From the NCBI RefSeq assembly GCF_032854445.1, contig NC_088303.1:20591501-20655500 (forward strand): a stretch of DNA of 64,000 nucleotides, given 5' to 3'. Positions 5,841-47,837 of the stretch are shown piece by piece (positions within the stretch are counted from its first letter, which is position 1; each line of letters begins with the position of its first letter). Origin of the DNA: Liolophura sinensis (taxonomy: Eukaryota; Mollusca; Polyplacophora; Chitonida; Chitonidae). Below the pieces are notes generated by a model, which saw only the letters and a list, made by a program, of their open reading frames with translations, made no database searches and had not been told where the DNA came from. Made by a program: the position numbers and the translations under genes.

Positions 5841-6098
5841 AACATATATACGTTATCGGGGGTAAAACTCGGCACCGTGCAACGACTATTGGCAGTGCTG
5901 TCACGAGACTGTCTCGCACGTTTCAACAGCCAGGTTTAATGACGCGATGCACAAGATACGAGTCTGTCTTAGAGTTGCGGAAGAGTTTGGACTGGGCAGC
6001 CGCCATCCATGAGGAGAACGTCCACGAGGAGAACGGACATCCATGAGCAGAACGGAACAAGTAACTTGTTCGTTTACGAATAATTGGGAAAGGTACGA

Positions 6099-6134
6099 GA
6101 CTATAGGCCTGTATATTTATATAGGCCTATAGTC
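6099..6134. repeat. Perfect 12-bp inverted repeat (hairpin) in the left spacer
   Basis: The arms gactataggcct (6099-6110) and aggcctatagtc (6123-6134) are separated by a 12-nt A/T loop. A related 'cctataggcctat' occurs in the right spacer near 21945-21957, supporting a shared origin of the two spacers. Confidence 0.8.
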
Positions 6135-6277
6135 GAGCAGATAAATTCTCAACACTTTAAACCCCTTATTATCCGAAAACACAGACATTACTGTAACCCT
6201 GAAGACCTTCTCTAATGTGTCATTGTTAATTAGTAACCTAATAGTCCTCCATCACTAACTTGAAGAAAAAATATTAA

Positions 6278-8855
6278 AGATCCACGAGGAGGACCTTGCC
6301 TAGTTCACCTCCCCATAGGTATAAAGTATAACATCCACGAGGAGGACGCTGGCTAATTTACCTTCCTACTGGCATAAGATACAACATCGACGAGAAGGAC
6401 AGTGGCTAATTTACCTTCCTCCAGGTAAAAGGTACAACATCCACGAGGAGGACGGTGGCTAATTTACCCTCATATAGGTATAAAGTACAACATCCACGAG
6501 GAGGACGGTGGCTAATTTACCTTCCTATAGCCATAAAGTACAACATCCACGAGGAGAACGGTGCCTAATTTACCTTCCTACTGGTATAAAATTCAACATC
6601 CATGAGGAGGACGGTGGCCAATTTACCTCCATGTAGGTATAAGGTACAACATCCACGAGAAGGACGGTGGCTAACGTACCTCCATGTAAGCATGAGGTAC
6701 AACATCCACGAGGAGGACGGTGGCTAATTTACCTTCATATAGCCATAAAGTACAACATCCACGAGGAGGACGGTGGCTAATTTACCTTCATGTAGGTATA
6801 AAGTACAACATCCATGAGGAGGACGGTGGCTAATTTACCTTCCTACATGTATAAAATTCAACATCCACGAGGAGGACGGTGACCAGTTTACCTTCCTATA
6901 AGTATAGAGTACAACATCCACGAGGAGGACGGTGACTAGTTTACCTTTCTATAGGTATAAAGTTCAACATCCACGAGGAGGTCGGTGACTAGTTTACCTT
7001 CCTACTGGTATAAAGTACAACATCCACGAGGAGGACGATGGCTAGTTTACCTTTCTGGAGGTGTCAGGTACAACATCCACGAGGAGGACGGTGCCTAATT
7101 TACCTTCCTACTGGTATAAAGTACAACATCCATAAGGAGGACGGTGGCTAATTTACCTTCCTACTGGTATAAAATTCAACATCCACGAGGAGGACGGTGG
7201 CTAATTTACCTTCCTACATGTATAAAATTCAAGAAAACAAAAGGACAGTGGCTGATTTACCTTCCTATATACAACATCCACGAGGAGGACGGTGACTAGT
7301 TTACCTTTCTATAGGTATAAAGTTCAACATCCACGAGGAGGACGGTGACTAGTTTACCTTCCTACTGGTATAAAGTACAACATCCACGAGGAGGACGGTG
7401 GCTAGTTTACCTTTCTGGAGGTGTCAGGTACAACATCCACGAGGAGGACGGTGCCTAATTTACCTTCCTACTGGTATAAAGTACAACCTCCATAAGGAGG
7501 ACGGTGGCTAATTTACCTCCATGTAGGTATAAGGTACAACATCCACGAGGAGGACGGTGGCTAACTTACCTTCATATAGGTATAAAGTACAACATCCACG
7601 AGGAGGACGGTGACTAGTTTACCTTTCTATAGGTATAAAGTACAACATCCACGAGGAGGACGGTGGCTAATTTACCTTCCTACATGTATAAAATTCAACA
7701 AAACAAAAGGACGGTGGCTGATTTACCTTCCTATATACAACATCCACGAGGAGGACGGTGACTAGTTTACCTTCCTACTGGTATAAAGTACAACATCCAC
7801 GAGGAGGACGGTGGCTAGTTTATATTTCTATAGGTATAAAGTACAACATCCACGAGGAGGACGGTGACTAGGTTACCTTCCTATAGGTATAAAGTTCAAC
7901 ATCCACGAGGAGGGCGGTGGCTAGTTTACCTTCCTATAGGTATAAAGTACAACATCCACGAGGAGGACGGTGACTAGTTTACCTTTCTGTAGGTATAAAG
8001 TTCAACATCCACGAGGAGGACGGTGGCTAGTTTACCTTCCTACTGGTATAAAGTACAACATCCACGAGGAGGACGGTGACTAGTTTACCTTTCTGTAGGT
8101 ATAAAGTTCAACATCCACAAGGAGGACGGTGGCTAGTTTACCTTCCTACTGGTATAAAGTACAACATCCACGAGGAGGACGGTGGCTAATTTACCTTCCT
8201 ACATGTATAAAATTCAACATCCACGAGGAGGACGGGGACTAGTTTACCTTTCTATAGGTATAAAGTTCAACATCCACGAGGAGGACGGTGGCTAGTTTAC
8301 CTTTCTGGAGCTGTCAGGTACAACATCCACGAGGAGGACGGTGCCTAATTTACCTTCCTACTGGTATAAAGTACAACATCCACGAGGAGGACGGTGGCTA
8401 ATTTACCTCCATGTAGGGATAAGGTACAACATCCACGATGAGGACGGTGGCTAACTTACCTCCATGTAAGCATGAGGTACAACATCCATGAGGAGAACGG
8501 TGGCTAATTTACATTCCTACTGGTATAAAGTACAACATCCATGAGGAAGACGGTGGTTAAGTTGCTTTCCCATACGTATAAGGTACCACATCCACGAGGA
8601 GGACGGTGGAAAATGTATCTTCCTATAGTTATAAAGTACAACATCCACGAGAAGGAGAGTGGCTAATTAACCTTTCTACATGTATAAAATTCAACATCCA
8701 CGAGGAGGACGGTGACCAGTTTACCTTCCTATAGCTATAGAGTACAACATCCATGAGAAGGACGGTGGCTGATTTACCTTCCTATAGGTATAAAGTTCAA
8801 CCTTTATAGGTATAAAGTTTTCCATCCTTCAGGTATGCAGTACAACATTGATGAT
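6278..8855 (+). repeat. 53-bp satellite array, left arm (direct orientation)
   Basis: There are roughly 48 copies of a 53-bp unit with the invariant core 'catccacgaggaggacggtg', followed by 'gctaatttaccttcctat' and 'aggtataaagtacaa'. Units differ by point changes. A composite variant with 'aaacaaaagga' occurs twice, near 7232 and 7690, showing that multi-unit blocks were duplicated. There are no long open frames, as 53 is not a multiple of three. Confidence 0.97.
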
Positions 8856-11098
8856 TACCAAATTAACTTCTAATAAAGATTTAACTGATTGATTGACACA
8901 CACTTATGAGGACAATAGATAAGTTATATGTCGTTTTGGTACAGCTAAAATCTATATGCGGAGGACTGTTGCCTTGTTTATTTCTGAGAAATATATATAA
9001 CATATAATGTATAAGTATGTATGTAAGGTGATGGATACCAGGGTTTGTTACATGTTTAGGAAACTTTTTTAAAACTAAGTATTAACCCGATTTGAATGGA
9101 AGCCCTATAAGTTATATAATAGCTCTTCGCCAGCCTGATCACACTTGTGTGGTAATTAATTATAGGTTGTTTATTGTTACTTAGAATTGTTATATGTTTT
9201 ATGTACATGATTATTATTATTGCTTTATTCTGTGTACAGTAAACTTCTGACGCTTAATGTTGTAATCCCTTTTGATCTCTGCCTGTGCATAGCTGTTCAC
9301 AGCGCTCTTGTTGTCAATTAACGTTCAATGGCCATTTAATTAGTATGTAAAAACTTGCAGAGATAAAGCCTGGCGAATTGTTACGCTCAGTTCCTTGATA
9401 AGGACAAACAAGGTCTTTGCTGCTGTTGTATAGCCTTATTTATAACCCCAAAAATACACATATGTAGCTTGAGACCATAATTTGTAAAGTGCGAAAAACA
9501 TTGAATATTTAAGAAAGCTTATTTTGCCAAAGATATCAAGTAAGTTTTTCAGAGTTTGCTTCTTAACACACCCTACACATTATTTCCTCTTATGGCAGAG
9601 AAAGGTTCAAGCGTCTAAATTCTGTGTCTGACCTCTGACTTTCATGCATGACCCAGTTTATTTTGTTATACCGCAGAAGCTTACATCCACATATATCAGA
9701 TTTCACTGGTGGACAAGTGATCGCCCGCTTTATTGCTCCGGAATTCTCTAAGTGAAAACATTTAACTTGAAACTACGTTAGGCGTCTCCATCGTATAGGG
9801 TTTTCATATGTGGCGCTACCATAAAGTTACTTGCTTTATTTATGTATTTATTTATTTGATTATTGTTTAACGCCATATTCTCTTTAGGACACATGGTCTG
9901 TTTATTCACAACCTAATGTATATAACATCCTAGCCCAGCAAACCACGGTGGAATTTTTAGAAAGACAATATAGTCCTCAGACTTAAAAAGGAATTCAGAC
10001 TTATCTCCTTGTCAAGGAAATCTGTCAGCTATAACTTTCTCATACCCAGAATTGTTTTCTTTGACCTAAGCAAGATGCATTTATTACTACTATTATTAAG
10101 TTTTAAAAAATAAAATGATCAGAATCATAAAAATCCACACATCACAAAATATTTCTTAACAAATATGTGTACAGGCAAAAGAATGCAACAATACAGGTGT
10201 ATGTAAATATACCGTCAATGTAATTATTTAACTCAATTCGCATTAAAATTTGCCTTTCCCTGCCCGACAACCAAGTAGCGGAAGATCCATGTATAATACA
10301 ATATGAATTTGGGGTCGGGCTTTTTGAAGAGCGCTTTGATTTTATTCATACAATGAATGAAATCCTCATGAAATGGCTGAAAAGGAAGTATGTCAAGCAA
10401 ATACCATTTCATTTGTACTACCTAGCACATTGGGCCGACTATAGTGCTTGAAAGTCATATCTGCAGTGTCGTGATAACTTTTGTTATGGTTGAAGAATTT
10501 AAAATGTACTTCGGACCAATATCTTTATCTTAGAAATTAAGTAGGACTATTTTATTTTGTTCATATGGACATGTTGTCTCACATGAATGATCTTGATGTC
10601 TCCTTATCCCAGTTTACTTGGAATTCGACGGTGGAGAGTTATTTCCGGAAAAATTAACGAGTTCTATCATGTACGAGTTTGTTTATGTTTTTCGGACGCC
10701 AGAGAAATACAATATTTGGAATAACTCGATGTTGATAGAGGTATAAATGATTTTCTAATTCGATTATAGGATAAAACATTTCCAGTTAAAGTTAAAAGCG
10801 TGGAGTTTCTAAGAACATTCAGTGTATAGGCCTGCTCTTTCTACGCTTTTATACCTCCGTGCATCACTTGCCACAATGTCTAAACAAAACAAATTTATGG
10901 GTAACTTTCGTGTGTCTGGACCGTGGAAAGCTGAGGTGGCGGTGTGTTTGTAAACACAGTTTCCCATCGCATGTCTGCTGAAGTAATACTATCTCAGGGT
11001 GACTTGTTAGCTTTGCAGTTTGGCTAATGTAGTACATAGCTTTTATAAAAGCTTTCCACTTTTCCGACGAGTTTATTTCTGGACGCTGCAATGTAACA
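8856..11098. other. Left non-coding part of the KDZ element core
   Basis: A/T-rich sequence without a convincing gene. A weak SINE family-A remnant (tttaacgccatattctc..) lies near 9855-9895. The A of the probable first transposase ATG is at 11099. Confidence 0.5.
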
Positions 11099-12681
11099 AT
11101 GACAGCACACCAACCTGTCGTGATTCAATCTGTGGATGAATTGTTAAGTTGTGTAAAAAGTTGCAAGGATTGTTGTAAAGGAGACTATATTTCATTCCAT
11201 TGTCCGTTATGTCCACCGTCAAAGTTCAAGCCAACAAGGAAGAAGAAAGTAGAGAACCATTTGAGAGCTGTACAGTGGAAAGCACGCGTTGAGGGACAAA
11301 ACGATACGTAAAATTAAGCATCAATACGTTTTCATCTAAAATACTGTGTACATATATAGTTATCGTCTACGGCTTTATATGATAGGCGAGCTTTTTGATT
11401 AACTTTTCATGTTAAAAAAAAATAGATACATTCCCTGTCAATGAGATGATATGTTCTTAAATTATTTTTCTACATCTTTTTTCGAAATGTATACTCCTAG
11501 TGGTCATCCAGACGTATATGCAGATTTATCGGCTCTGTAGGTGACGCCAATTTAAAATATTCTTCCAGTGATGAGGCAGAGTAAAATAGATATCAAAGCA
11601 AATCTAAACTTACAGATCTTGTTTTCGTGATTGGCCCCGGCGATGGATGTAAAACAAAAAGATGCCATCAACTTCCGGTCGGACAAATGCAAGTGTCTAA
11701 TTTGCAAGGGAAAAAATCATCATCAGATCATCTATACCTGCAATTGAACTTCTACTCAATGGCTTCATGTAAATAGTAGTTGTGTTGTGTTTGTGTACAT
11801 ATTCTTTCTATTAGACCAACAGATTAGTCATTTGGCGTGTATGTTTTAATACCACACAATGTAAAGAACGCTCCCGCTGCGCTAGCCGTAACTTGAAAGC
11901 CAACAGATGTTTTTCTTAAATAATGCATGAACGGTGGCAAAAATTTTAATGCCAATCACTGGAAAACTATTCATCTGAAATAATTTGATACGAGAGAAGA
12001 GCACAATTTGTCCTGCTGACCAACTTTCAACATTGCACCATTACTGCTTTTCGCATCGTGTCTCAAAAATCAGAATAAAGTGTGCCTAAAAGCGAAAACT
12101 TCTTTAGAACCAAAACAGAGCCACATTCGTGGTTAGCTCTTTATACCTAATGCATGAACAGTAGGTAAATTGTGGTCAAACTTTTTAAGCTAGAACAAAG
12201 CTAGAACAAAAGCAAAGCCAGATTCATAATCTATTTGTCAAATTACACTGTATATATTCACACAAAAAATCGGATCAGCTCTGCACGGGTTTAAACTTCT
12301 TTCCAAAGGCTTCACTGTGCGAGCAATCTAATTAGGCTTTAAGTCTGCGCTATATATTACAGTCCATGCACATAAGTCCATAAAACTGACCGCCATCACA
12401 TGGGCTGTAAATTGAGCTGTTTTTGAGGCGTAAAAGACCATTGAAATAAATAACTAAATTATCACAATGTTCAAAAGACGTGTTTATTTTTGTAGGTAAA
12501 AGTGTCGTTCTTTGCCATCTAACTGAACACAGTTCTTCACGGCATTTCCAGTGCAAGTCATGTTCAAGGATAATTATTCGCAAAGAGAACTTTGAACCAC
12601 GTTCAAACATGTGTTAATAGTCTTAACACGCCTGTTGCATCCAAATTCATTCCCTCTACCCGTACAGCGAAAAATTCTTAA

Positions 12682-13835
12682 TCGTCACGTGCAAAACACA
12701 GATCAGAAAACCATCAGAATAACGCAGTAGAGGCACAGGAAAGTGACGCGGTGACAAGTGACAAAGACCATTGCTATGCCACCCAGAGTATTAATCTGAA
12801 GACGACTTGTTCTAGATCATTGGATTCCCAGATTTCAACAAAGACGTCATCCCTTCGAGCAAGTTGTACACTATGTGGTAAAATTATAACAGTGAAATGG
12901 ATGGAATCGCACTTGAAATCTCGCCAGTCTCTACCACATGATGTTAATGTCTACAATCATCACCATACTGTTGTAATCGATCCAGCCAAAGGAGTGTATT
13001 GTTCGTCCAAATCAAGAAGTGGTCCTCAAATCCCGATACATCTGCAGAAAAATACGCTCACAAATGCTCCGATCAGCATTTGTGAAAACAACTCATGTAT
13101 TGAGTTGAAATCGGCGGCAAGAAGAGGTGGGAACAGTTCCTTTGAGTGTGATCACGTTCGTTCTGTTCCTTATGCCATTCCTGGAAGAGAAACGATTCTT
13201 AGACAAGACACGCTTGAATGCATGCGGAGTGAAAATTTCATCACCGAAAGTAGATACAATGAACTAAAGCAGTGCCAAGAAACAGCTGAAAGCTCAGGAC
13301 GCCCATTTGTAGTACTCATTCCACCTCATCAGTCGACCTAGTATCCTAGACGTATTCATCTGTCTGTGTACACGGGGAAAAAAGGTTCTGGTGCAAACTA
13401 CAACGGACTATAGTAACGTACAATAAACAAAGAAACACCACAATATGCAGGTGCACAAAAAGCATTCGCACATGCCTCCATAATCTCATCTGCAAATGGT
13501 ATTTAAAACAAGAGCTACCAGAGTTGATATCGTCAGATGACGTGGAGTCATTATCTTATCAAGAAATTGACCAACAAGAATCTGACAATGAACGGGTAAA
13601 CGGGAGCCAGAGGCCAGTTCCACTGAGAAATAACAGCCAACATTTCCGATCATTACCAAGGAGTATTCCAAAGGACATCCCTCTGGAGGTCCGGCAAATT
13701 ATCAAAATCACAAAAGAGACGGTATCCTCGAAATTACTCCAAGAGAAACATCATGTGTTCTATGCCAAGGACCACTCGATGTTCGTCTTGTTTCCAGCAA
13801 GTCGAAAATAATACATTTACAACTAGTGGTAAAAG
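12682..13835 (+). pseudogene. KDZ transposase, large N-terminal exon (zinc fingers, SWIM)
   Basis: The frame opens at 12682; the true acceptor is uncertain. A CTLC..H finger lies near 12862, the block HTVVIDPAKGVY at about 12965-13000, and FECDHVRSVPYA near 13141. A TAG at 13339-13341 interrupts the frame, but the same frame continues with YPRRIHLSVYTGKKG. A shift in the A-run at about 13378 leads into the SWIM finger (CRC..CLH, then CKWYLKQ). A second shift near 13730 leads into ETSCVLCQGPLDVRLVS. The donor AAAAG|GTAAG ends the exon at 13835. Confidence 0.75.
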
Positions 13836-14419
13836 GTAAGGTCTCCAACTATCAAGAACTTTAGGTCACTGTGCTCAGAACAACTGAAGGAATGAATGGT
13901 TATGGGCATGATATATCGACAATATTCTTGTCATACGGTATCCTGGCACAAGCTAGGTCCAAATTCAGGACACTAAGGAGAACTGAACAATGAAAAAACC
14001 AGCTTGGCTTAATATTAAACATGACATTGTAATATATTCACTGTTAAATAATTATATTAAGCCTTTATGTCTGATCCTATGTATCATACGCTCACGGCAT
14101 CGCGAGCAAAGCTGTCCGATAATTGAAAAGATTATGTGGATATTTCGTCAAATATACACCAACGGTGGAAATGTTCTCATAAAAAAACACAAAAGCTTTT
14201 GGAGAGAGTGATATACGTAAATATGATGTAGTGTATTAATGATTCAGCATGGAATGGTTTAGCATGGCAGTTCTCATAGTTCCTTGATTTTCTATTTGGT
14301 TACATTTATCTGAAATTAGACCATGTCTGGATATCTTAATGGTTCGCCGTTATATAATTAATAATAGTTAATATAATTAAGTATAAAATTTTAGAATTAT
14401 CAAACGCCATCTCTTTCAG

Positions 14420-14559
14420 ATATAACCGTATACAACAAGGTATGCAAACCATGCCAATTGTTGTATCAACATAAAGAATGGAACGAAGGCATTCATAACT
14501 TCAATGATGTCATTTTCCTTGGGCTTGATGTATGTCTTTTCATCAGAGCTGGACTACAG
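14420..14559 (+). pseudogene. KDZ transposase exon, CxC5-like cysteine block
   Basis: The 140-bp exon has acceptor ctctttcag and donor CTACAG|GTACTC. With the one base left over from the exon ending at 13835 it gives 47 codons: DITVYNKVCKPC..., HKEWNEGIHNFNDV and LFIRAGLQ. It has no stop. The CxxC..EW..GIHNFND pattern is typical of the cysteine cluster preceding KDZ catalytic domains. Confidence 0.85.
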
Positions 14560-14772
14560 GTACTCTGAAGTGTTTTATGTTTATTAATGATAAAATGTCA
14601 GATTTATTCTATTTTATTTATTTACTCTATTGAGCATGCAGCATGTAGATTTTAACAGAAAATTTAACATCAACAAATCTTCCAGTTTAATGTTATCTCA
14701 AGTCATTATATACTTACTAAAACTTCAGTTATCAATATTGAAGATAAAATTTTGACGTTTAATTGTTTTCAG

Positions 14773-14974
14773 AACCACGTTGCAACAGGGCGGTCTGTTG
14801 CCATGCTTCAAGAAATGATCGGAGAGAATGTTGACACCTACACTTTACATCAAGCATACCTACATTTCGAGGCATGTACTTACCACGATTACAGTTTCCA
14901 TTGTGTCCTTTGTGGGTATCACCCTTCCATACTTATCTTCGACACCTGTCGCAAAGTAGCGTTCCGCCATTCAG
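14773..14974 (+). pseudogene. KDZ transposase exon carrying the first catalytic Asp
   Basis: The acceptor is tgttttcag and the donor is TCAG|GTAGGT. In frame with the previous exon it encodes NHVATGRSVAMLQEMIG, LHQAYLHFEACTYHDY, CVLCGYHP and LIFDTCRKVAF. The D of IFDTCRK (14941-14943) sits at the end of the first core strand of the RNase-H-like fold and is the likely first catalytic residue. It has no stop. Confidence 0.88.
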
Positions 14975-15343
14975 GTAGGTGGGCATGCAGCGTATATGAC
15001 AAGACATGTAATTGGATGATATACATTTCTGAATATTCTGAATCAGAAGATTAGATTTAATGTTACACAATGACATGTATAAACGTGGTTAAAAAGCACT
15101 CTAGATATCCAGCAATATTAACATTAACACCCCAACAGCAAAACCATAAATACATATTCGATTACCTGCCCATACATGTCAACTTTCATGCCAAAAGCAT
15201 AAAATTGAAAGTGGTTTCCTAAGCCATCGGACTAGGTCATATTTGGATTGTTGATAAATTCTAAAACTCTGATGGTGTTAAATAATTATTTATCCTGGAA
15301 GTATAAAGTCAAAATTTCCGACATATCTTACTGTTACTTATTA

Positions 15344-15994
15344 TGGCAAGCCGTTCCGGCCTTAGAGCATTTATTTAAGACATTTTGAATTCAGTCAAGA
15401 TGTCTTGAATTCATTTCAGATATCTTGAGTTCATTTGGACATATCTGGAAATCATTTTCAGACATCTGAAATTCATTTTAAGATATCTAAAATAAATTTC
15501 GTGCTGCATATATCACAAAAAGCATTTCAGATATAACAAAATGAATTCAAGATCTATTAAATAGATGTCAATTTGATATATCTGGAAGTCTCTTTGTGAT
15601 AGGTGCCCTACATTTGTCTGGTTATTTATGTGAACAAAATGTATGCTCCTTAATTATATCACCACGATCAGCCATGATGGCTTGCAGTGCGCATGAGCAG
15701 ATCTGTACTAATTCTGTTTCCGCTCAGGGAGGAGTTATTGCATTTTGTACATTTTGGCGCAATTTCTGTGGCTCTTTTACGGTTATGTGCATCCTTGTTT
15801 TTTATTCCGAGATATGTTCAAAAGAATTTTTGATGTCTGGAAAGGATTTTCAGATATGTGAAATACATGATCTATATATTAACACAAGGCTGCTATTTAA
15901 GAAATCTAGAAATGAATTGCAGATATCTGAAAATTAATTCAAGATATCTTGAAATAAATTCAAGATATCTGAATTAGGCCGAAATGGCTTGCCA
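15344..15994. mobile_element. MITE with TA target site and repeated AGATATCT motifs
   Basis: The ends are inverted: 'tggcaagccgttccggcctta' at the left and, reversed, 'tggcaagccatttcggccta' at the right, each flanked by TA. Both flanks inside carry multiple copies of 'ttcagatatctgaaattcatt' and 'aagatatcttgaattcattt'-type palindromic motifs. The middle (about 15600-15850) is non-repetitive with no transposase. It lies in an intron of the KDZ gene, so it inserted there later. Confidence 0.8.
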
Positions 15995-16149
15995 TAGGTA
16001 AGGGCAGATACTTTACACGTCATGAAGGTGGAGGTAGATGTATATATGTACCAACACGCAAATGAAGTACAAGTTATTCAGTGATATACATCTGTTATGG
16101 TTTTGTGGTCACATGAAAATGCTACACACTCAACTATAAGTCAATAACG

Positions 16150-16276
16150 ACGTCACTTTGTTATCTTTCCGTGTCTGATTTGTCCATTCCGTCTGGTGAA
16201 GTTTCTGACACGGTTGATGCTAAGGCTTTCTGGTCTGCAGTTGAGAACAGCGTAAGAAACCCTGGCACTCGACCGG
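16150..16276 (+). pseudogene. KDZ transposase exon (SDLSIPSGEV...FWSAVENSV)
   Basis: The frame encodes SVSDLSIPSGEVSD, then DAKAFWSAVENSV, and ends CGACCGG|GTAAGA at 16276. The acidic FW..VE motif matches the KDZ inter-strand region. The acceptor is not clear; the only nearby AG is in the wrong phase. The exon start is approximate. Confidence 0.65.
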
Positions 16277-16437
16277 GTAAGATATCAATATGCTAAAGGT
16301 AGTCAAATTTTAGACTACAAAATTTACTGCACAACTAGTGAAGCTCTACGTCTAAATTTAAAGACCTTTCACGATACAATCTTCCAGTCCGAAAATGTAA
16401 GACAGTGTGTATTTTCAACTGAAAGCAATGATTGATC

Positions 16438-16682
16438 TCGACCCTGTCCCACAAAGCAATCGTAGGCGAAGGTTATTGTAACTAACATGGCTGCCCATCT
16501 CTTTTACATGGGTTGTCATGGTAGTTATAATCAGCTTAGAATAAGGCTGCTTTGTGGAACAGGGCCCAAAGCAAACGTAGGCTAAGCTGATTGTAACTAC
16601 CATAGCTACCTATCTCGTTAACATGAGTTGTCATGGTAGTTACAATCAACCTAGTTTACGACTGCTTTGTGGAACAGGGGCC
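16438..16682. mobile_element. Two tandem copies of a short palindromic MITE
   Basis: A ~120-bp unit whose ends read 'ccctgt(t/c)ccacaaagca' and, inverted, 'tgctttgtggaacagggcc' occurs twice back to back (about 16438-16567 and 16565-16682). The copies share the inner 'attgtaactaacatggct' and 'gttgtcatggtagtta' blocks, which are themselves inverted. It lies in a KDZ-gene intron, just before the exon at 16736. Confidence 0.75.
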
Positions 16683-16735
16683 AGGTGATTAGCAAATGAG
16701 GTTAACTACTAACAGGTTGTTCTCCCTTGCTTCAG

Positions 16736-16923
16736 AACAAAATACCATAACTCCGTCCTACGAGTTTTGGAGTCCTTGGATTGGCGAAAACTCTCGCAGT
16801 GGTGACTTGATTTACAACACGGAAATAAAGAAATGTTCTCAAAGTATAAACAAGGATAATGAAGACCCCGTGTCCGAACCGATGCCAGAAGAAACCATCA
16901 TGAACATGTTAAAGGATGAAAAG
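16736..16923 (+). pseudogene. KDZ transposase exon (PSYEFWSPWIG...NTE)
   Basis: The acceptor cccttgcttcag and donor GAAAAG|GTATTT give 188 bp, completing 63 codons with the split codon of the preceding exon. The translated motif TITPSYEFWSPWIGENSRSG followed by LIYNTEIKK is a hallmark segment of KDZ/HMGXB3-type proteins. No stop is present. Confidence 0.85.
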
Positions 16924-17189
16924 GTATTTCCAGTGTAGGATGTAATAACAATTTACTGTATGCACTCACGTGAAAAGAGAACGTTTAAGAGTTAAGGGTA
17001 TTTGCACTTACTTCAAAGTGCATGTACTTATCTGGGGATATTTTATCCTATATTCTCTCAACGTTTATCTGTATGATGCAAATGCCTTTTTTCTCTGACA
17101 TTAATTTTCGGTCATTTGCTTCGAAAACAAATTCGCTGCATTTAAATTTCGCGGATATATAGGGTGGAATAGTATTATGAAGATTTAGT

Positions 17190-17285
17190 TATTTATTTGA
17201 TTGGTGTTTCACGCCGTACTCAAGAATATTTCACTTATGCTGACGGCGGCCAGCATTATGGGCAGATCCCGGGGGAAACCCACGA
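17190..17285 (-). repeat. SINE family A, 5'-truncated
   Basis: It contains 'ttatttatttgattggtgtt' then 'cgccgtactcaagaatattt', the cggcggccagcattatg block and 'cccgggggaaacccacgacc', after which the match stops. It lies in the KDZ gene intron before the SAP-like exon. Confidence 0.85.
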
Positions 17286-17368
17286 CCATATTTATAAAGA
17301 CTGTAAAGAAATAATGATGAACACAAAAGCTTCAACACAGCTCAAACCAAAAAATTCTCATATCTTTT

Positions 17369-17472
17369 GACAGGGTGTCGACAATCCGAAAAATGTGTCG
17401 TGAAGTGGGTGTTAAAGCAGAAGGGTACTCTGTTGATATGATCACCTGGAGTGAACCGCATAAACTCAATTA
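17369..17472 (+). pseudogene. KDZ transposase exon, SAP-like segment
   Basis: After acceptor cttttgacag, one frame reads VSTIRKMCREVGVKAEGYSV and DMI, resembling the SAP-like helix pair found before the second catalytic strand in KDZ proteins. The frame is one base out relative to the preceding exon (an extra G at the junction) and ends at TAG 17470-17472 without a donor. The exon is degraded. Confidence 0.6.
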
Positions 17473-17644
17473 GATATGGCCAAATATAAACATGGCAGGT
17501 TTCCTCACATGAGCATTTTTAGGTGATACAACATCAGTTAAACTGTCATTGTATTTATTAAATCGTTCTCTTTGGCTGTGACGCTTAAAATCACTCAGCC
17601 ATCAAGAAGTTTATTATCCTTAAATACGTTCTTTATTCTTCTAG

Positions 17645-18576
17645 GAGGATGGGCGGTTGGTTGTTGCCATCACGGTGTTGTTCATGCCATTAAAAGCTTG
17701 CTGCGGTCTGAAAGTTCAAGGGATTATCTCGACATTGAAAGATCTATGAAACATCGACCTAATATCACCATCTGCGACATAGCGTATCTACTGGCAAGAC
17801 AGGCCAACAAAATAATTCCACATTTTTATTCCCCAAACGAAGGAAGACTGGCACCTGATACAGATTTAAACATTGCAAGAGCCGAAAAAAGAGAGCTGGA
17901 TTGCGGGGCCGAATTTCTGACAAATCCCATTTTTCCCCCGACTGTGTCGAATCGAACAAAAACCCCGTCACACGATCTGACGTACACTATGCGCTCATAG
18001 ACTGGTTCCACCAAGAAAACTGTAAGAGCAGGCAAGAGATACTCTGACGGTCTTCCCTGCTGCCTGAGCTTAGTGGAATCAATGACACCCAAGCGGTGGA
18101 GCAACTCTTCAGCTCTCTGAAACGGGACATCTATTATTTAAATAACATGTCCCCGGTCAAACATATTTTTCTTTTTCGACTCATAATACAGCTCAGAAAC
18201 GTCAGATGAAACCGAGAACTCCTTCGTAAACAAACGACAAGATTTGGACAGGGATTGTTCTACAATCAATTTGGACAGGTCTGTCAGAAATATCTAACCG
18301 AAGCTGTACAACCCACACTCACGGATGACACCATCCAGACGCCTGTTTGATCTGAAATTGTTGTCGACTGGGAGTATGAACATGGCGAGACGAATGAAGA
18401 GATCGCCAATACTTCTGAAAGTGGACGTGGGGAACCATCAGCCTGTGGATTAACGGATACTAAAGTCCAAGAGAACATACTTTTGGGCTCCACTCTATAA
18501 GAGTTAAAGCACTTGTACACAAGCTAGTCCAGCTATTAGGAGCCGAGCGAATTCAGAAGATTTTAAATGTGGATGG
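17645..18576 (+). pseudogene. KDZ transposase, catalytic C-terminal exon
   Basis: The acceptor is ttcttctag at 17644. The frame reads GGWAVGCCHHGVVHAIKSLL, SSRDYLDIERSMKHRPNITI and CDIAYLLARQANK (second catalytic Asp). A one-base shift follows in the T5C5 run near 17925. Next come NPVTRSDVHYALIDWFHQEN, a TGA at 18045, LPELSGINDTQAVEQLFSSL (catalytic Glu), NNMSPVKHIFLFRLIIQLRN, TGA at 18207, TGA at 18348, and a final shift near 18495 into VKALVHKLVQLLGAERIQKI. Each TGA fits CGA to TGA decay. The donor is GATGG|GTTTGT. Confidence 0.85.
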
Positions 18577-18990
18577 GTTTGTATTTACCTTGTATTTTAT
18601 CTATTTGTTTTTATTTTTTGGTATGATTAGATATGGCTATTTTGGCTCCAGTTATGCATGGAGTAGTATCGGAATGGCTTTCCAGCTTTCAAGTTATCTA
18701 TATACAGACTGTTCAAATGTGTATAAACATTTGACAAGACTAAAGCCATAAAAAGGAGGAAAGTAACTAAGAATATTGCAGTCATCAAATAGTCATTTAC
18801 ATGTAGATGTGTGTTTAATTATTTATCATTATAATTTCATAATTTTGTTCCGCGCATGACTTGCTAAAAAGTGTGCAGGCATATATGTTTAATTAGTAGC
18901 AATCTATATACATTTCCAGATTTCAGTCTTTTACAAATGAATAGGAAGCCTTTAACAGGATTGCATTCTGTTCACATTTTTTCTTTGTAG

Positions 18991-19195
18991 GTACGAAGGG
19001 ACAGTCAGGAATAGGAGATGTAAGGAAGCTTTGGTTCGGGATGTAGTCGCACTACTTGTATCCAACAAACTGCACATATCTTTACCAGAAGCAAGACGAA
19101 GATGCTGTCAAACTGAACATTCATCGTTTCACACGGCACTTAAAAAAAGTGAACAATTAAGAGCACACCGCTTAATCAGCAGTACTGAATCGTAA
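18991..19195 (+). pseudogene. KDZ transposase, last exon
   Basis: The acceptor tttctttgtag is followed by a basic stretch (YEGTVRNRRCKEALVRDVVA, PEARRRCCQTEHSSFHTALK) that stays open to TAA at 19193-19195. The phase agrees with the donor at 18576. A basic tail fits DNA or nuclear binding, but this is inference. Confidence 0.7.
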
Positions 19196-19397
19196 CTGGC
19201 ATGCTGTGTATGTAAATAATAGATGACTGATGAGTTGACAATGTGTATTTTATATCATCGTTATCATTGTATCATGGCTATATGCCTTGTACATATAGCC
19301 TACACCAATAATGTATTTTCCATTCCACCACCATACCATTCATTGCCTCACTTACACATGTATAGAATCTTAGAATGTACAAGAGAGTTAATACACT

Positions 19398-19403
19398 AAT
19401 AAA
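19398..19403 (+). terminator. Candidate poly(A) signal of the KDZ gene
   Basis: AATAAA lies 203 bp after the last stop codon. It is the canonical hexamer in A/T-rich sequence, so chance occurrence is possible. Confidence 0.4.
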
Positions 19404-19829
19404 ATTGCCTAGGGTACTGCAGCATATGTATTAAAACACAACTTTTATCCTTACATCTCAGTAAAGCGTTCTTCAGTTTATAATAGTTTTTCTGTAAAGG
19501 TTTTTGCAAACCCGATGAATACAATGTTGTAACCAGTTTTAGGGAAAGGAACTTGTTGAATTAGAGTTTCTGTTGGCAAACTCTCCATGGGGATGGGTTA
19601 TGGCACTGCGCGAGGGCTCCATAAAATACATATATTTAAACCAGAATGTGGTTGTTGACTTTTTTATTCAACTGTCCGGAATTGGTGGTCACTGGATTTC
19701 TCATATTCTGTGATTCGAGGATTATATTCTAAGGCTCTATAATAATTTTCTCATCTACGTACATGTAGAGAAAGGCAAAATCGGTTTGTTCTCGTTCGTG
19801 TTGGGCTTTTCCCATCTGCGGAGAAAAAG

Positions 19830-21915
19830 GATGGTAAATTAGTCACCGTCCTCCTCGTAGATTTTGTACCTGATACCTGTAAAAACGTCAATTAACCACT
19901 GTCCTCCTTATGGATGTTGTACTTCATACCTATAGCAACATAAATTAGTCATCGTCCTCCTCATTGATGTTGTACTTTATACCTGCAGGAAGGTAAATTA
20001 GCCACCGTCCTCCTCGTGGATGTTGTACTTTATACCTACAGGAAGTTAAATTAGCCACCGTCCTCCTCGTGGATGTTGTACTTTATACCTACAGGAATGT
20101 AAATTAGCCACCGTCCTCCTCATGGATTTTGTACTTTAAACTTATAGGAACTTAAATTACTGACCGTCCTCCTCGTGCATGTTGTATCTTATACCTATAG
20201 GAAGATAAATTAGGCACCGTCCTCATCGTGGATGTTGTACTTTAACCCTATAGGGATGTAAATTAGCCACCGTCCTCCTCGTGGATGTTGTACCTTATAC
20301 TTATAGGGATGTAAAAAAGCCACCGTCCTCCTCGTGGATGTTGTACTTTAACCCTATAGGGATGTAAATTAGCCACCGTCCTCCTCGTGGATGTTGTACC
20401 TTATACTTATAGGGATGTAAAAAAGCCACCGTCCACCTCGTGGATGTTGTACTCTATACCTATAGGAAGATAAATTAGCCACCGTCCTCCTCGTGGATGC
20501 TGTACTTTATACCTGGAGAAAGGTAAAGTAGCCACTGTCCTCCTCATGGATGTTGTACTTTATACCTATATGAAGGTAAATTAGCCACCGTCCTCCTCGT
20601 GGATGTTGTACTTTATACCTTGAGAAAGGTAAATTAGCCACCGTCCTCCTCGTGGATGTTGTACTTTATACCTGGAGAAAGGTAAATTAGCCACCGTCCT
20701 CCTCGTGGATGTTGTACTTTATACCTGCAGGAAGTTAAATAAGCCACCGTCCTCCTCGTGGATGTTGTATTTTATACCTGCAGGAAGTTAAATTAGCCAC
20801 CATCCTCCTCGTGGATGTTGTACTTTATACCTGGAGAAAGGTAAATTAGCCACCGTCCTCCTCGTGGATGTTGTACTTTATACCTGGAGAAAGGTAAATT
20901 AGCCACCGTCCTCCTCGTGGATGTTGTATTTTATACCTGCAGGAAATTAAATTAGCCACCGTCCTCCTCGTGGATGTTGTACTTTGTACCTGGAGAAAGG
21001 TAAATTAGCCACCGTCCTCCTCGTGGATGTTGTACTTTATTCCTGCAGAAAGGTAAAGTAGCCACCGTCCTCCTCGTGGATGTTGTACTTTATACCTGCA
21101 GGAAGTTAAATTAGCCACCGTCCTCCTCGTGGATGTTGTACTTTATACCTGGAGAAAGGTAAATTAGCCACCGTCCTCCTCGTGGATGTTGTAGGCCTAC
21201 TTTATACCTGGAGAAAGGTAAAGTAGCCACCGTCCTCCTCGTGGATGTTGTACTTTATACCTATATGAAGGTAAATTAGCCACCGTCCTCCTCGTGGATG
21301 TTGTACTTTATACCTGGAGAAAGTTTAAATAGCCGCCGTTCTCCTCGTGGATGTTGTGCTTTATACCTGCAGGAAGTTAAATTAGCCACCGTCCTCATCG
21401 TGGATGTTGTACTTTGTACCTGGAGAAAGGTAAATTAGCCACCGTCCTCCACGTGGATGTTGTACTTTATACCTGCAGGAAGTTAAATTAGCCACCGTCC
21501 TCCTCGTGGATGTTGTACTTTATACCTGGAGAAAGGTAAAGTAGCCACCATCCTCCTCGTGGATGTTGTACTTTATACCTGCAGGAAGTTAAATTAGCCA
21601 CCGTCCTCCTCGTGGATGTTGTATTTTATACCTACAGGAAGTTAAATTAGCCACCGTCCTCCTCGTGGATGTTGTACTTTATACCTACAGGAAGGTAAAT
21701 TAACCACCGTCCTCCTCGTGGATGTGTATTTTATACCTGCAGGAAGTTAAAAAATCCACCGTCCTCCTCGTGGATGTTGTATTTTATACCTGCAGGAAGT
21801 TAAATAAGCCACCGTCCTCCTCGTGGATGTTGTATTTTATACCTGCAGGGAATTAAATAAGCCACCGTCCTCCTCGTGGATGTTGTATTTTATACCTGCA
21901 GGAAGTTAAATAAGT
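19830..21915 (-). repeat. 53-bp satellite array, right arm (inverted orientation)
   Basis: There are about 39 copies of the reverse complement of the left-array unit, with core 'caccgtcctcctcgtggatg' and then 'ttgtactttatacctg'. This arm is more homogeneous than the left. Its most frequent variants ('ctggagaaaggtaaattagc' and 'ctgcaggaagttaaattagc') differ from those of the left arm, so each arm has evolved by local amplification since the two separated. Confidence 0.97.
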
Positions 21916-23403
21916 TAAATACCAAGTACCTGTATATTGTATAGTCCTATAGGCCTATGAACCCCATGTCGGGAAAACGGGTCTGGAGAGGCCTTGGGCT
22001 GTTGTATCCTTATGATATAGGCCTAGAATACCTTGTCTTATTCATCATCTGTCGTCGGTAGTTTGATAATTTATACCGATAATTTATAACATACCTTGTC
22101 TTACTCATCATCTGTTGTCGATAGTTCGATAATTTGGAGAAGCACTGTAGTAAATAAAATTTAAGTTAATGGTGTCAGATATACGGTGATATAATCCGTA
22201 TGTCTTTTTACCGAACACAAATGTGTAACTATGCCCCACCACTTTGCATTTCGCGCCATATGTATGGTCATGCGCACTGCAACGTCCTCCTGATGGATGT
22301 CCGTTCTCCTGGTGGATGTACTTCCGTTCCCCTCGTGGATGTAGGCTGACGAGTACTGTTGGTTTGGATCGCGAAAGAATGATCTAAGGTAAGCCGTTTA
22401 AGTGTTACTCTGTATAACTACTTAAAATTGTTTGAAAACCGTATGATTGTAAAGCTTTTTACAAATTAGGAACAGGTGTACTTGTTTTTATTGTAGACAG
22501 TTAAACGGTTAATTGCTTCACAATCTGCGAATCACATTCCCGCGACGTCCCAACAACAACAACAACAAGCGAAAAGGGCATGCTGAAACTAGCACATGGG
22601 AGTTTGTAGGGAATAAGTTGCTGTCTCCGCATTTCATTTATGCTATGTCATTGTCTTTCGGTTCCTTAGCATGAAAATTTGTTAAATAAAGTCACTCAGT
22701 CAATTAATCAATTTCTGGGGAGCTATTGTATTTGTGGGTTGCTAACCTATCAATCGCATTTTTAATGCTAGGCATCAAAAGACAGCAACCTATTCCCTAC
22801 AACCTACCGCTAACCGCAACATTAACAGCCACATGAAAGTTGAAGTAATTCTGCCGACATTAGGCCTACGTTTTAGTTATTGCCTTTTGTCAGTTTATCA
22901 CATAGAAAGAAACAAGCCAATAGATCTAAATGATTCTACAAAATGATGCATATTCACCACTGTTGCCTCCAGCCACCTAACCCCTTTTTGCAAATGTTAG
23001 GACTGGTAATACAGTGTTTTTTATGGTGTTTTGTTTAGTGTACATATGCCTAGAAATGTCAGCAGATATGACTTAACATGTTGACTGAAAATTAATGGTG
23101 CATGATGGTTTGACTTCCATGTATTTGCTGCACATGAAAATCATTAAAACAATGGCAGGGAATCCTGCATAAATTTGTTGTCATCCCTAGTCTAGAACCA
23201 CATTAAGGTTTATCGGCTTTTATATGGTATATTTTTGTGCTTGGGTGGAGTAATTAAAAATAACTTTCTGTTTGCAGATTGAAAGATGTTGAGCAGAGGG
23301 AAAAATGGTAAATATTTGCAAACCATACTATTAATGTTACACGTTATGAATATGTATGTCAGTCATTTCAAGATCCAAATTGAGGAGCGGGCCCTGGCTT
23401 CTT
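21916..23403. other. Right spacer, outer motif block and unique sequence
   Basis: The outer motif block of the KDZ unit lies at 22280-22344. Beyond it, ATCTAAG|GTAAGC near 22390 is a good donor, and gtttgcag at 23271-23278 is an acceptor before a short segment ending AAAATG|GTAAAT near 23308. These could be leader exons of the SET-domain gene downstream. A (CAA)n run lies at about 22552-22567. Nothing else is recognisable. Confidence 0.4.
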
Positions 23404-23660
23404 TTTTTTTTTTTTTTTTTTTTTTTGATTGGTGTTTTACGCTGTACTCAAGAATATTTCACTTATACGACGGCGGCCAGCATTATGGTGGGTGGAAACC
23501 GGGCAGAGCCCAGGGGGAACCCACGACCATCCGCAGGTTGCTGGCAGACCTTCCCACTTACGGCCGGAGAGGAAACCAGCATGAGCTGGACTTGAACTCA
23601 CAGCGACCGCATTGGTGAGAGGCTCCTGGGTCATTACGCTGCGCTAGCACGCTAACCGAC
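23404..23660 (-). mobile_element. SINE family A, near full length with 12-bp target duplication
   Basis: Reverse-oriented copy with a long poly(T) (the A-tail), the conserved body, and the tRNA-like head ending at 'gcgctagcacgctaaccgac'. The duplication ccctggcttctt is perfect at 23392-23403 and 23661-23672. Confidence 0.95.
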
Positions 23661-26070: not shown

Positions 26071-27079
26071 TGTTACGGTATTGAAAACGGCAACAGAAAA
26101 CAGACTCAGTGACTCAATATTACAATGTAAACAATGCTTTATATATAAAATGAGACGTACAGTTTTACAGACAGTTCAACAACAACAACAACATACACAT
26201 CAGTATTACCGGTCTTTACAAGTTTCCAGTTCACCTTTGCATCCCAAGGAATGTATTCCAGGAAATCCAACGTAAAGACCATGGGATAAACACACAATTC
26301 ACACAAGTCACAAATTGTCCTAGACAGGTACTTCGCCAGGTTAGCGAACACGAACACAGGTTACACAGAACTGGAACAGTCAAGCCTTTGAATGACGTCA
26401 CACCCGCAGAGCACAACACAGGGTAAATACAGGCATGGAGGTATAATCCACTTCAGATCAGTCACAGCTCCCGCAGAAGCTCACAAACGAGCCGTTCAGA
26501 GACGTAGAGTAATGTCACCTTGTGGCAGAACGAACGTCCTTTGCAAAACTGAAAACTTCAGTTTAGAGTCCTTGACGACCTTGTCGGTCAGGTGAGGTCA
26601 GCGTGTTAAACAAATTACACAGTCCACACTGTATAATCATAATAAAGATCCGAACACCAATAAACGTGACTTCCGCAGAAATTCACATAAACCAGACATC
26701 AGTACTACTGTGGTACACAAACGGTGCCGGCATAAAAAAACTGTCCTCCCAAATGAAACTGGCATCACCAGCTCATATCAAAATAATGGACTCGATACGA
26801 GAGCGTCTCACACTCTCCTGGCTCCCAGTGGATGCAGCAAAAAATCCTCCCCTCTGCACAGAAAACACGGCTTATATACGTGCCAGGTGGATTCAACTAT
26901 TCTTAGACACAGAATTAACAGCCAATGAACAGCCAGTTAAATAAACAGAGCATTGAACACGGTGCTTTCGGCCAGGTTCGCGCTGTACATATATAACAGG
27001 GCCTGTTATGCTTATAACATATAACACCAAGGTCCGCAGACTAACAGTACATGAAAACATTAAATAGTCATACATAACA
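26071..27079 (-). repeat. Complete LTR (about 1009 bp)
   Basis: In element orientation it starts TGTTATGTATGACTATT and ends TTTTCAATACCGTAACA. The polypurine tract ('gaagggtgggggtg' in element sense, about 27078-27094) abuts its upstream edge, so this is the 3' LTR. A short (CAA)n run lies near 26178-26191. Confidence 0.9.
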
Positions 27080-27193
27080 CCCCCACCCTTCAGGGAAAGA
27101 AAGTTTTGCATAAAACTTTCTTTAACATATTCATAATTATGAATAACAATAACGTTTACCATAGTCTTTAAAAACAAAGCTGCAGAAAACCAA

Positions 27194-27945
27194 CTAGACA
27201 CGTGACAAACAATCAGCAATCACATTATCTTTCCCTTTTATGTGTCTAATCTCTAGATTAAATTCTTGCAAAAGCAAACTCCACCGTAACAATCTTCGGT
27301 TTTTACCTTTTAGTTTGTGCAAGAAGGTTAAGGGATTGTGATCTGTATACACAACAATGGGGTAACTTGAGGAAGTCACATATACTTCAAAATGCTGTAA
27401 TGCTAGAATCAAGGACAGACATTCCTTTTCTATTGTCGAATAATTTCTCTGGCACTTGTCAAATTTGCGAGAGAAAAAACATACAGGGTGATCAACGTGA
27501 TCTGTTTCATTTTCTTGTAACAAAACTGCCCCAGCAGATATATCACTAGCATCAACAGCTAGCTTAAATGGTAAATTAAAATCAGGTGCTACAAGTATGG
27601 GGCCGCTGCTTAGCATGGCCTTTAATCTATCAAAAGATCTCTGACACTCAATGGACCACAAGAATTTAGCACCTTTCTTTAACAGCTGAGTTAGTGGCTC
27701 ACTAACAAATGAAAAGTTCCTACAGAACTTTCGATAATAACCTGCCATGCCCAAAAAACGCTTTAACTCTCTCTTACAACTTGGCACTGGAAAACAAGAG
27801 ATAGCACTGATTTTAGAATTAACAGGTTTTACCTGACCCTGTCCGACAACATGCCCTAGATATGTGACAAAAGCACAACCAAACTCACACTTGGCCAAAT
27901 TTACTGTAAGATTGGCTTGGGACAGTCTCGCAAATAATGCCTCCT
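27194..27945 (-). pseudogene. Ty3/Gypsy pol fragment: end of reverse transcriptase and RNase H
   Basis: The reverse frame is open from the junction at 27945 to the stop near 27194. It covers the reverse-transcriptase connection region (FLGMAGYYRKF) and an RNase H domain with DASDISAGAVL, a FSRKF...NYSTIEKECL block, YTDHNPLTFLHK and GKDNVIADCLSR, all standard for the Ty3/Gypsy RNase H. No integrase follows; only about 115 bp separate the frame end from the LTR. The 5' part is lost at the junction. It is a fragment, not a working polymerase. Confidence 0.9.
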
Positions 27946-28310
27946 TGCCTGTATTTACCCTGTGTTGTGCTCTGCGGGTGTGACGTCATTCAAAGGCTTG
28001 ACTGTTCCAGTTCTGTGTAACCTGTGTTCGTGTTCGCTAACCTGGCGAAGTACCTGTCTAGGACAATTTGTGACTTGTGTGAATTGTGTGTTTATCCCAT
28101 GGTCTTTACGTTGGATTTCCTGGAATACATTCCTTGGGATGCAAAGGTGAACTGGAAACTTGTAAAGACCGGTAATACTGATGTGTATGTTGTTGTTGTT
28201 GTTGAACTGTCTGTAAAACTGTACGTCTCATTTTATATATAAAGCATTGTTTACATTGTAATATTGAGTCACTGAGTCTGTTTTCTGTTGCCGTTTTCAA
28301 TACCGTAACA
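27946..28310 (+). repeat. 3' 365 bp of the LTR, opposite orientation
   Basis: It matches 26071-26435 in reverse complement over the same 365 bp. It begins exactly at a shared 'tgcctgtatttaccc', suggesting a microhomology junction with the pol fragment. Confidence 0.9.
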
Positions 28311-28333: not shown

Positions 28334-28438
28334 CCGATTGTTTCCCTTTTGTTTTGCACCGGATATTTGAAGTTAAACACAAGTGAGAAGCGATTGCTTA
28401 ATTTTAACGGTGAATGATTCAGTGGCTAAATATTTACA

Positions 28439-29068: not shown

Positions 29069-29876
29069 GTAAAGACCATGGGATAAACACACAATTCACA
29101 CAAGTCACAAATTGTCCTAGACAGGTACTTCGCCAGGTTAGCGAACACGAACACAGGTTACACAGAACTGGAACAGTCAAGCCTTTGAATGACGTCACAC
29201 CCGCAGAGCACAACACAGGGTAAATACAGGCATGGAGGTATAATCCACTTCAGATCAGTCACAGCTCCCGCAGAAGCTCACAAACGAGCCGTTCAGAGAC
29301 GTAGAGTAATGTCACCTTGTGGCAGAACGAACGTCCTTTGCAAAACTGAAAACTTCAGTTTAGAGTCCTTGACGACCTTGTCGGTCAGGTGAGGTCAGCG
29401 TGTTAAACAAATTACACAGTCCACACTGTATAATCATAATAAAGATCCGAACACCAATAAACGTGACTTCCGCAGAAATTCACATAAACCAGACATCAGT
29501 ACTACTGTGGTACACAAACGGTGCCGGCATAAAAAAACTGTCCTCCCAAATGAAACTGGCATCACCAGCTCATATCAAAATAATGGACTCGATACGAGAG
29601 CGTCTCACACTCTCCTGGCTCCCAGTGGATGCAGCAAAAAATCCTCCCCTCTGCACAGAAAACACGGCTTATATACGTGCCAGGTGGATTCAACTATTCT
29701 TAGACACAGAATTAACAGCCAATGAACAGCCAGTTAAATAAACAGAGCATTGAACACGGTGCTTTCGGCCAGGTTCGCGCTGTACATATATAACAGGGCC
29801 TGTTATGCTTATAACATATAACACCAAGGTCCGCAGACTAACAGTACATGAAAACATTAAATAGTCATACATAACA
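29069..29876 (-). repeat. 5' 808 bp of the LTR, minus orientation
   Basis: It corresponds to 26272-27079 over exactly 808 bp, lacking the terminal ~200 bp of the LTR. The junction with gag occurs at a 'gtaaag' shared by LTR and gag-side sequence. Its outer end abuts the CAGA target duplication. Confidence 0.9.
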
Positions 29877-30044
29877 CAGATAATCGGCCTGACAGTGAAG
29901 ACAGCATTAACAACTAGAGGAAGAGTCTGAATCAGCTGAAGCTAGTGATAGTGGTATGTACACCAATGGGTACATGTACGCCACAAGTGAAATCTGGCAA
30001 TTTCATATGCATGACTTCCTCACTATAGGAGCAAATGTCCTTGA

Positions 30045-30440: not shown

Positions 30441-30566
30441 GTATATCTTACAACTGTTTGGACATGTATCTTTGTAACAGAATAAAAACTGAGCTTTTTT
30501 GTGTCTCCTAAAGACTTGACCGAAACACTAGACCTGTAGGGTTTGCACACAGCTGTATTACTTAAT

Positions 30567-30717
30567 TTATTTATTTATTTATTTATTTATTTGATTCCTG
30601 TTTTACGCCGTACTCAAGAATATTTCACTTACACAATGGCGGCCATCATTATGGTGGGTGTAAACCAGGCAGAACCCGGGGGAAATCCACGACCATCTGC
30701 AAGTTGCTGGAAGACTG
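30567..30717 (-). mobile_element. SINE family A, 5'-truncated, with 10-bp target duplication
   Basis: A (tatt)n tail is followed by the 3' body of family A up to 'gcaagttgctggaaga'. The duplication attacttaat lies at 30557-30566 and 30718-30727. The tRNA-like head is missing, so this is a truncated insertion rather than later decay. Confidence 0.9.
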
Positions 30718-44032: not shown

Positions 44033-44140
44033 AGCAACGTGCGGATGGTCGTGGGTTTCCAACCTTATGCTGGCCGCTGTCGTATGAATGAAATGTTCTT
44101 GAGTACAGCGTGAAACACAAATAAATAAATAAATAAATAA
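44033..44140 (+). repeat. SINE family A, 5'-truncated copy
   Basis: 'gcaacgtgcggatggtcgtg' opens the match, which is internally shortened and ends in an (aaat)n tail. 'tgatcag' on both sides may be the target duplication. Confidence 0.85.
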
Positions 44141-44184
44141 ATATGATCAGCAATAATAGCATCATTCTCCCATGAGGATGAAAC

Positions 44185-47783: not shown

Positions 47784-47837
47784 ATCGGACAAAATCAAAA
47801 CTGTATCTCAGTAGAGATGCATAGGCCACGCCACTGT

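What the first reader, a model, noticed from the sequence alone, without database searches (positions are those of the whole stretch)
5999..22350. Giant fold-back transposon: KDZ transposase gene between mirror-image 53-bp satellite arrays
Seen: the same 53-bp repeat forms arrays of 2.6 kb (about 48 units, direct) and 2.1 kb (about 39 units, inverted) on either side of an 11-kb core. Matching outer motif blocks lie 0.2-0.4 kb beyond each array. The core contains a KDZ-type transposase gene. Known: Drosophila fold-back and Galileo elements have terminal inverted repeats made of tandem repeats. Inference: this is an independent fold-back architecture in the KDZ superfamily, possibly with the arrays acting as multi-site transposase binding regions. 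I know of no published description for KDZ.
Basis: partly seen in the sequence, partly recalled or inferred. Interest (0 to 1): 0.88.

Follow-up and report, generated by a model that had tools for sequence, protein, structure and literature searches.

The report
Zisupton transposon with mirrored repeat arrays
A 16-kb jumping gene of the Zisupton (KDZ) type, now broken, sits in what looks like a chiton genome and carries dozens of tandem copies of its own end motif as two mirror-image arrays near its ends, an arrangement that recalls the unrelated fly element Galileo.

Summary
Two arrays of one 53-bp unit (6280-8801, 48 copies; 19828-21911, 39 copies) face each other in inverted orientation around an 11-kb core. 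A short terminal inverted repeat, 5991-6054 against 22354-22283, encloses them. It holds three copies per end of the unit's 17-bp motif. A matrix of this motif, scanned over both strands of the 64 kb, ranks exactly these six sites first outside the arrays (16.9-20.8 bits; next 5.2), while the other 36 bp of the unit are absent from the ends. So the arrays belong to the element. The core holds a multi-exon, now broken Zisupton-type transposase gene; a modelled relative aligns best to a DDE transposase. The host is almost surely Liolophura, a chiton. It is not a textbook fold-back element: 225 and 371 bp of dissimilar DNA separate each end from its array. Best reading: repeated transposase-binding sites, as in Galileo; the binding is inferred. 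No target-site duplication, second full copy or empty site could be shown. New variant of a known kind.

The parts
5991..6054 (+). Left terminal inverted repeat; 17-bp motif copies start at 6005, 6020 and 6039 (the last runs one base past the alignment)
   Evidence: Local alignment to 22354-22283, score 59 against shuffle maximum 29; motif sites 18.2-20.8 bits
6055..6279 (.). Left spacer (225 bp) between terminal repeat and array, no clear counterpart on the right
   Evidence: Further alignments score at most 24, within the shuffle range
6280..8801 (+). Left subterminal array, 48 copies of a 53-bp unit, motif on + strand
8802..19827 (.). Core of about 11 kb with the transposase gene
12826..13586 (+). 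Coding region of the N-terminal half of the Zisupton-type gene, with zinc-binding-like cysteine/histidine stretches (label mine); a frame change and a stop inside
   Evidence: tblastn with P0009, E 2e-18, frame changes at about 13374; stop after 13338
14420..14559 (+). Exon in the CxC4 region of the relatives
   Evidence: ag before 14420 and gt after 14559; P0003 46.9% over 49 aa
14773..14973 (+). Exon with the first putative catalytic Asp
   Evidence: ttgttttcag before 14773; tblastn matches E 2e-9 to 5e-17
16735..16926 (+). Exon; 62 of 63 residues identical to Liolophura sinensis protein P0005
17644..18281 (+). Catalytic-core coding stretch with the second putative Asp and the Glu; a frame change and two in-frame stops
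   Evidence: tblastn with P0001, P0004, P0009, P0038: E 1.5e-26 to 1.2e-37; the weakest relative tried, P0003, 1e-16 and 6e-15
19828..21911 (-). Right subterminal array, 39 copies of the same unit, inverted
21912..22282 (.). Right spacer (371 bp) between array and terminal repeat
22283..22354 (-). Right terminal inverted repeat; motif copies at 22282 (one base outside the alignment), 22301 and 22324

Best explanation
A decayed cut-and-paste DNA transposon of the Zisupton branch of the KDZ superfamily, 5991-22354. Shown: it ends in a 64-72-bp terminal inverted repeat with three clustered copies of a 17-bp motif; inside each end lies a large array (48 and 39 units) of a 53-bp unit whose best conserved stretch is the same motif, in the orientation of its end; the core encodes a multi-exon Zisupton-type transposase that is now broken. 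Inferred: the motif is the DNA-binding site of the transposase (probably of its N-terminal zinc fingers); one motif with 36 bp of neighbouring DNA became the 53-bp unit and grew by unequal exchange mostly within each arm, giving some 40 to 50 binding sites per end that gather transposase and help pair ends 16 kb apart, as proposed for Galileo. About 0.85 for the anatomy and classification, about 0.55 for the binding role.
Confidence: 0.8

Rival explanations
1. The arrays belong to the element but are a neutral by-product: a short motif-bearing piece near each end expanded by slippage and unequal exchange, and the copies do nothing.
For: Tandem arrays are found elsewhere in this window too, for example at 44185, 57606 and 61393. 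Units cluster by arm, as local unequal exchange predicts. Two long arrays persist although the gene is dead.
Against: Both arms expanded the same 53-bp unit, and the part shared with the ends is the best conserved. Neutral growth does not predict which part is conserved.
Confidence: 0.3
2. Satellite first: an inverted pair of satellite arrays existed, and a KDZ element or its gene lies between them by chance or by an inverted segmental duplication.
For: No target-site duplication and no second full copy fix the borders; spacers on the two sides do not match.
Against: The terminal repeats outside the arrays carry the array's motif, three per end, in the right orientation, and nothing else in the 64 kb does at up to 4 mismatches. 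An inverted duplication should have copied the spacers too.
Confidence: 0.07
3. The arrays mainly serve the element's expression or its silencing (promoter, enhancer or piRNA seed), not end recognition.
For: The arrays flank the gene on both sides; the first CpG of the motif is mostly kept: CG in 34 of 39 left and 29 of 32 right units that matched the search pattern. No direct test was possible.
Against: Does not explain why the same motif forms the two termini.
Confidence: 0.08

Closest known systems
Zisupton (KDZ superfamily), platyfish and other animals
   Same: Multi-exon gene related to Xiphophorus and other fish proteins, CxC clusters in relatives, terminal inverted repeats. KDZ elements up to 31.7 kb are known (PMC12477816, passages).
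   Different: Mirror tandem arrays near the ends appear in none of the KDZ passages that I read. No Ulp1-type (C48) protease exons were found here, unlike P0004, P0009 and P0038. The original Zisupton paper is not held, so it may describe such repeats.
Galileo (P superfamily, Drosophila)
   Same: Tandem repeats in the terminal regions hold extra copies of the transposase-binding site found near the end (PMC3688188, abstract and sections 1 and 2.6).
   Different: Another superfamily; 0.5-1.2-kb terminal inverted repeats; Galileo-G has four long direct repeats, with sites in the first two, against 39-48 short units here.
Tetris (fold-back element, Drosophila virilis)
   Same: Tandem units (about 220 bp) share a 37-bp stretch with the outer flanking domain of the terminal repeat, so units seem born from the end (PMC4079207, passages).
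   Different: No coding gene, thought Mutator-like by its authors; arrays lie inside long terminal inverted repeats.
Cryptococcus KDZ1, KDZ2 and KDZ3
   Same: KDZ transposase with terminal inverted repeats of 139-241 bp (PMC12810828, passages).
   Different: The words 'tandem repeat' do not occur in that paper's main text; 4-8-bp target-site duplications there, none shown here.

Membership tests
Zisupton / KDZ | Transposase homologous to Zisupton proteins | tested here: met
   tblastn with P0038 (Xiphophorus hellerii; CxC7 at nearly the position given for platyfish Zisupton G3KL21): residues 165-942 map in order to 12862-18212, best E 2e-29 and 1.5e-26, apart from three weak stray rows (E 0.5-0.9)
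Zisupton / KDZ | CxC zinc cluster associated with KDZ | tested here: inconclusive
   42 of 49 relatives match CxC4 at E <= 1; the window's own pieces match no such Pfam model, although exon 14420-14559 aligns within that region of P0003 and P0004
Zisupton / KDZ | Pfam KDZ domain PF18758 | tested here: inconclusive
   No match in the 581-aa joined gene pieces at E <= 1; not among the 25 shown of 52 families for 49 relatives
Zisupton / KDZ | DDE transposase (RNase H-like) fold and acidic triad | tested here: inconclusive
Zisupton / KDZ | Terminal inverted repeats | tested here: met
   64-72 bp, score 59 against shuffle maximum 29
Zisupton / KDZ | 8-bp target-site duplication | tested here: inconclusive
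   None convincing; an old copy may have lost it. None was detected for Zisupton-type elements of Pristionchus either (PMC9297572, passages)
Fold-back element | Long continuous terminal inverted repeats | tested here: not met
   Spacers of 225 and 371 bp between terminal repeat and array are not alike
Fold-back element | Tandem repeats inside the terminal regions, in inverted orientation | tested here: met
Galileo-like mechanism | Array units bound by the transposase | not testable with these tools
   Only the shared motif is shown

The most novel reading that the evidence does not exclude
KDZ transposons of chitons have independently evolved Galileo-like ends: a multi-finger transposase reads a 17-bp site repeated some 40 to 50 times per end, so that end recognition works by local crowding of transposase over kilobases and not by one or two sites, which could let a very large element pair its distant ends.
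Probability: 0.4. Interest if true: 0.7.

Novelty: new variant of a known kind. Interest (0 to 1): 0.52.

Why it matters
If other copies share it, this is a fold-back-like design arising in a transposon superfamily for which I saw no such report, with far more candidate binding sites per end than described for Galileo. It would make a general idea testable: that tandem arrays at transposon ends are banks of transposase-binding sites. It also shows a route by which a transposon end can seed a satellite repeat.

Tried and rejected
So copy number, other mirror pairs and empty sites remain untested.

Relatives with flanking DNA: A1 in viral contigs (32 pattern stretches, none a relative by tblastn) and in genome contigs (82 stretches, none a relative); the exact 20-base pattern in viral contigs (0 matches). 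The three answers say that records of the window's own or a near genome may be left out. So I could not look at the ends of other Zisupton elements.

Ten ORFs of the core against Pfam gave only weak unrelated matches (PRP21-like, DUF2688). The joined pieces gave none. I did not take these as evidence.

Target-site duplication: 900 offset pairs tried; the 7 of 8 hits at unequal offsets are near what chance gives (my estimate, about 0.3 expected), so rejected. The hit GGCAGCCG/GGCTGACG lies inside the terminal repeat.

A first conservation test cut units at the motif itself (0.966 against 0.881, permutation p 0.0004); it is biased toward the motif, and 4 of 47 left and 0 of 38 right intervals were dropped. 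I rely on the spacer-anchored test, whose bias runs the other way and for which I have no p-value.

Second copy: P0005 has 62 of 63 and 34 of 34 residues in common with the window, but its kinase part has no good match there (best E 0.32). It may be another copy or the same place with the kinase beyond the window's edge; I could not tell.

Fold: the Foldseek list (33 matches at E <= 10) has no significant row.

Literature: ten searches: seven use KDZ or a branch name, one fold-back elements, one sea-urchin TU elements, one the Liolophura genome. Searches listed only papers without the KDZ words, and one search found none, so the weight lies. One search found 65 papers with the word Zisupton and listed 40; I read passages of seven of the 65. 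I saw no description of tandem-array ends in KDZ; this covers open-licence papers and what I opened.

Full report
What is there. Two tandem arrays of the same 53-bp unit lie at 6280-8801 (48 copies) and 19828-21911 (39 copies). They are inverted to each other, 84.6% alike over 2071 alignment columns. Among 12 tandem arrays of the window that I tested, no other long pair is inverted; a 21-bp-unit array at 15369-15488 has a 79-bp inverted partner at 15895-15973, within the element.

The ends. Outside the arrays lies a short terminal inverted repeat, 5991-6054 against 22354-22283, with one 8-bp gap in the alignment and score 59 where 200 shuffles reached at most 29. It contains three copies of one 17-bp motif on each side. 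Between terminal repeat and array are 225 bp (left) and 371 bp (right) that do not resemble each other above shuffles. So this is a short terminal inverted repeat plus inverted subterminal arrays, not one long fold-back arm.

The link between ends and arrays. A weight matrix built from 85 array copies of the motif was scanned over both strands of the window. Outside the arrays the six best sites are the 3+3 terminal ones, 16.9 to 20.8 bits, in the orientation of their arm; the seventh is 5.2 bits, at 43632. Array sites have a median of 32.8 bits, so the end sites are related but not identical. The remaining 36 bp of the unit score 13 and 18 at the two ends, against shuffle means of about 15. 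Only the motif is shared. Within the arrays it is the best conserved part, together with up to 4 bp before it: 0.940 against 0.862 when units are cut at the spacer, 89 of 89 units used, motif window 5th of 53.

History of the arms. The nearest neighbour of a unit is in the same arm in 85.7% of cases, against a shuffle mean of 49.8% and maximum of 66.4% over 500 shuffles; mean identity is 0.806 within left, 0.823 within right and 0.802 between, and single cross-arm pairs reach 0.98. This fits a common founder unit and later growth mostly within each arm.

The gene. On the + strand, exons with good splice signals (for example ttgttttcag before 14773; gt after 14559) encode a protein related to P0001-P0004 (E 3e-73 to 1e-62; 5 of 3944 candidates passed; query of 581 joined residues). 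A profile search gave 91 proteins at E <= 0.1 of 7990 scored, many from fishes, some named HMG domain-containing protein 3-like. P0038 from Xiphophorus hellerii has a CxC7 cluster at 1333-1391 and a C48 protease domain; platyfish Zisupton G3KL21 is said to have its CxC7 domain at 1333-1393 (PMC12062965, passages). Residues 165-942 of P0038 map in order to 12862-18212 of the window, apart from three weak stray rows. None of the seven long relatives tried matched the + strand between 18338 and 22500 at E <= 1; the protease part of P0009 and P0038 was not seen. The gene is broken by frame changes near 13374 and between 17898 and 17961 and by in-frame stops.

The host. P0005 is an NCBI protein of Liolophura sinensis on a 25,057,479-base contig; the L. 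japonica assembly lists scaffold_12 with exactly that length (PMC11068029, passages), and a correction about the species name is listed (PMC12441733, start of abstract in the search listing). P0005 shares 62 of 63 and 34 of 34 residues with window exons. The window is thus almost surely from this chiton or one very near it.

Mechanism. Shown: one motif, at both termini and through both arms, oriented by arm, best conserved. Inferred: it is the transposase-binding site. Relatives carry N-terminal C2H2-like fingers: simple pattern hits in 5 of 5 proteins looked at, and the family profile matches CTCF fingers at E 7e-4. The same strict pattern found none in the three + frames of 8802-13600 of the window, a result against, though cysteine- and histidine-bearing pieces lie at 11141-11299 and 12513-12614 and overlap weak matches of P0032 (E 0.77 and 0.20). 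[quoted passage not shown] Tetris gives the precedent for units born from the outer end (PMC4079207, passages).

What is known. KDZ elements can be very large (30.3 and 31.7 kb; PMC12477816, passages), with terminal repeats of 139-241 bp in Cryptococcus (PMC12810828, passages). Zisupton is said to make 8-bp duplications (PMC12730594, passages). The KDZ-related searches showed me no report of tandem-array ends; of 65 papers with the word Zisupton I opened passages of seven. The founding Zisupton paper is not held, a real gap in this claim.

Limits. One copy, broken, no duplication, no empty site, and no access to the rest of the genome.

Noticed in passing
P0005 (Liolophura sinensis, Sgk2-like kinase): This annotated kinase gene model ends in two exons of the transposon, the second read out of the transposase frame: a chimeric annotation, or a kinase gene with a copy of the element.
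   Followed up: partly
26272-27080 and 29069-29877: Two identical 809-bp direct repeats, like the LTRs of a very young retrotransposon. Between them lie a Gypsy-like RNase H piece on the - strand and a + strand ORF at 28430, with a 99% inverted pair 26071-26447 against 27934-28310: a rearranged interior.
   Followed up: partly
47727-50303: Open reading frame of 858 aa for a Toll-like receptor (LRR and TIR domains); a broken inverted relative lies at 39709-41030.
   Followed up: partly
2720-2959, 17181-17260, 23402-23657, 30559-30715, 39811-39980, 44054-44143, 56731-56916, 59462-59646: A dispersed short repeat, several copies next to a T-rich or ATTT-rich run, SINE-like; one fragment lies inside the transposase gene. 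ARAGORN with the bacterial code found no tRNA in the window.
   Followed up: partly
44185-45201, 57606-58281, 61393-62900: Three further minisatellite arrays (54, about 50 and 36 bp units), without inverted partners; the 36-bp array is open in several frames, up to 487 codons.
   Followed up: no
6102-6140 and 21948-22023: Both spacers between terminal repeat and array contain the palindrome TATAGGCCTATA or most of it; TATAGGCC occurs 6 times in the window, four of them in these two spacers.
   Followed up: partly
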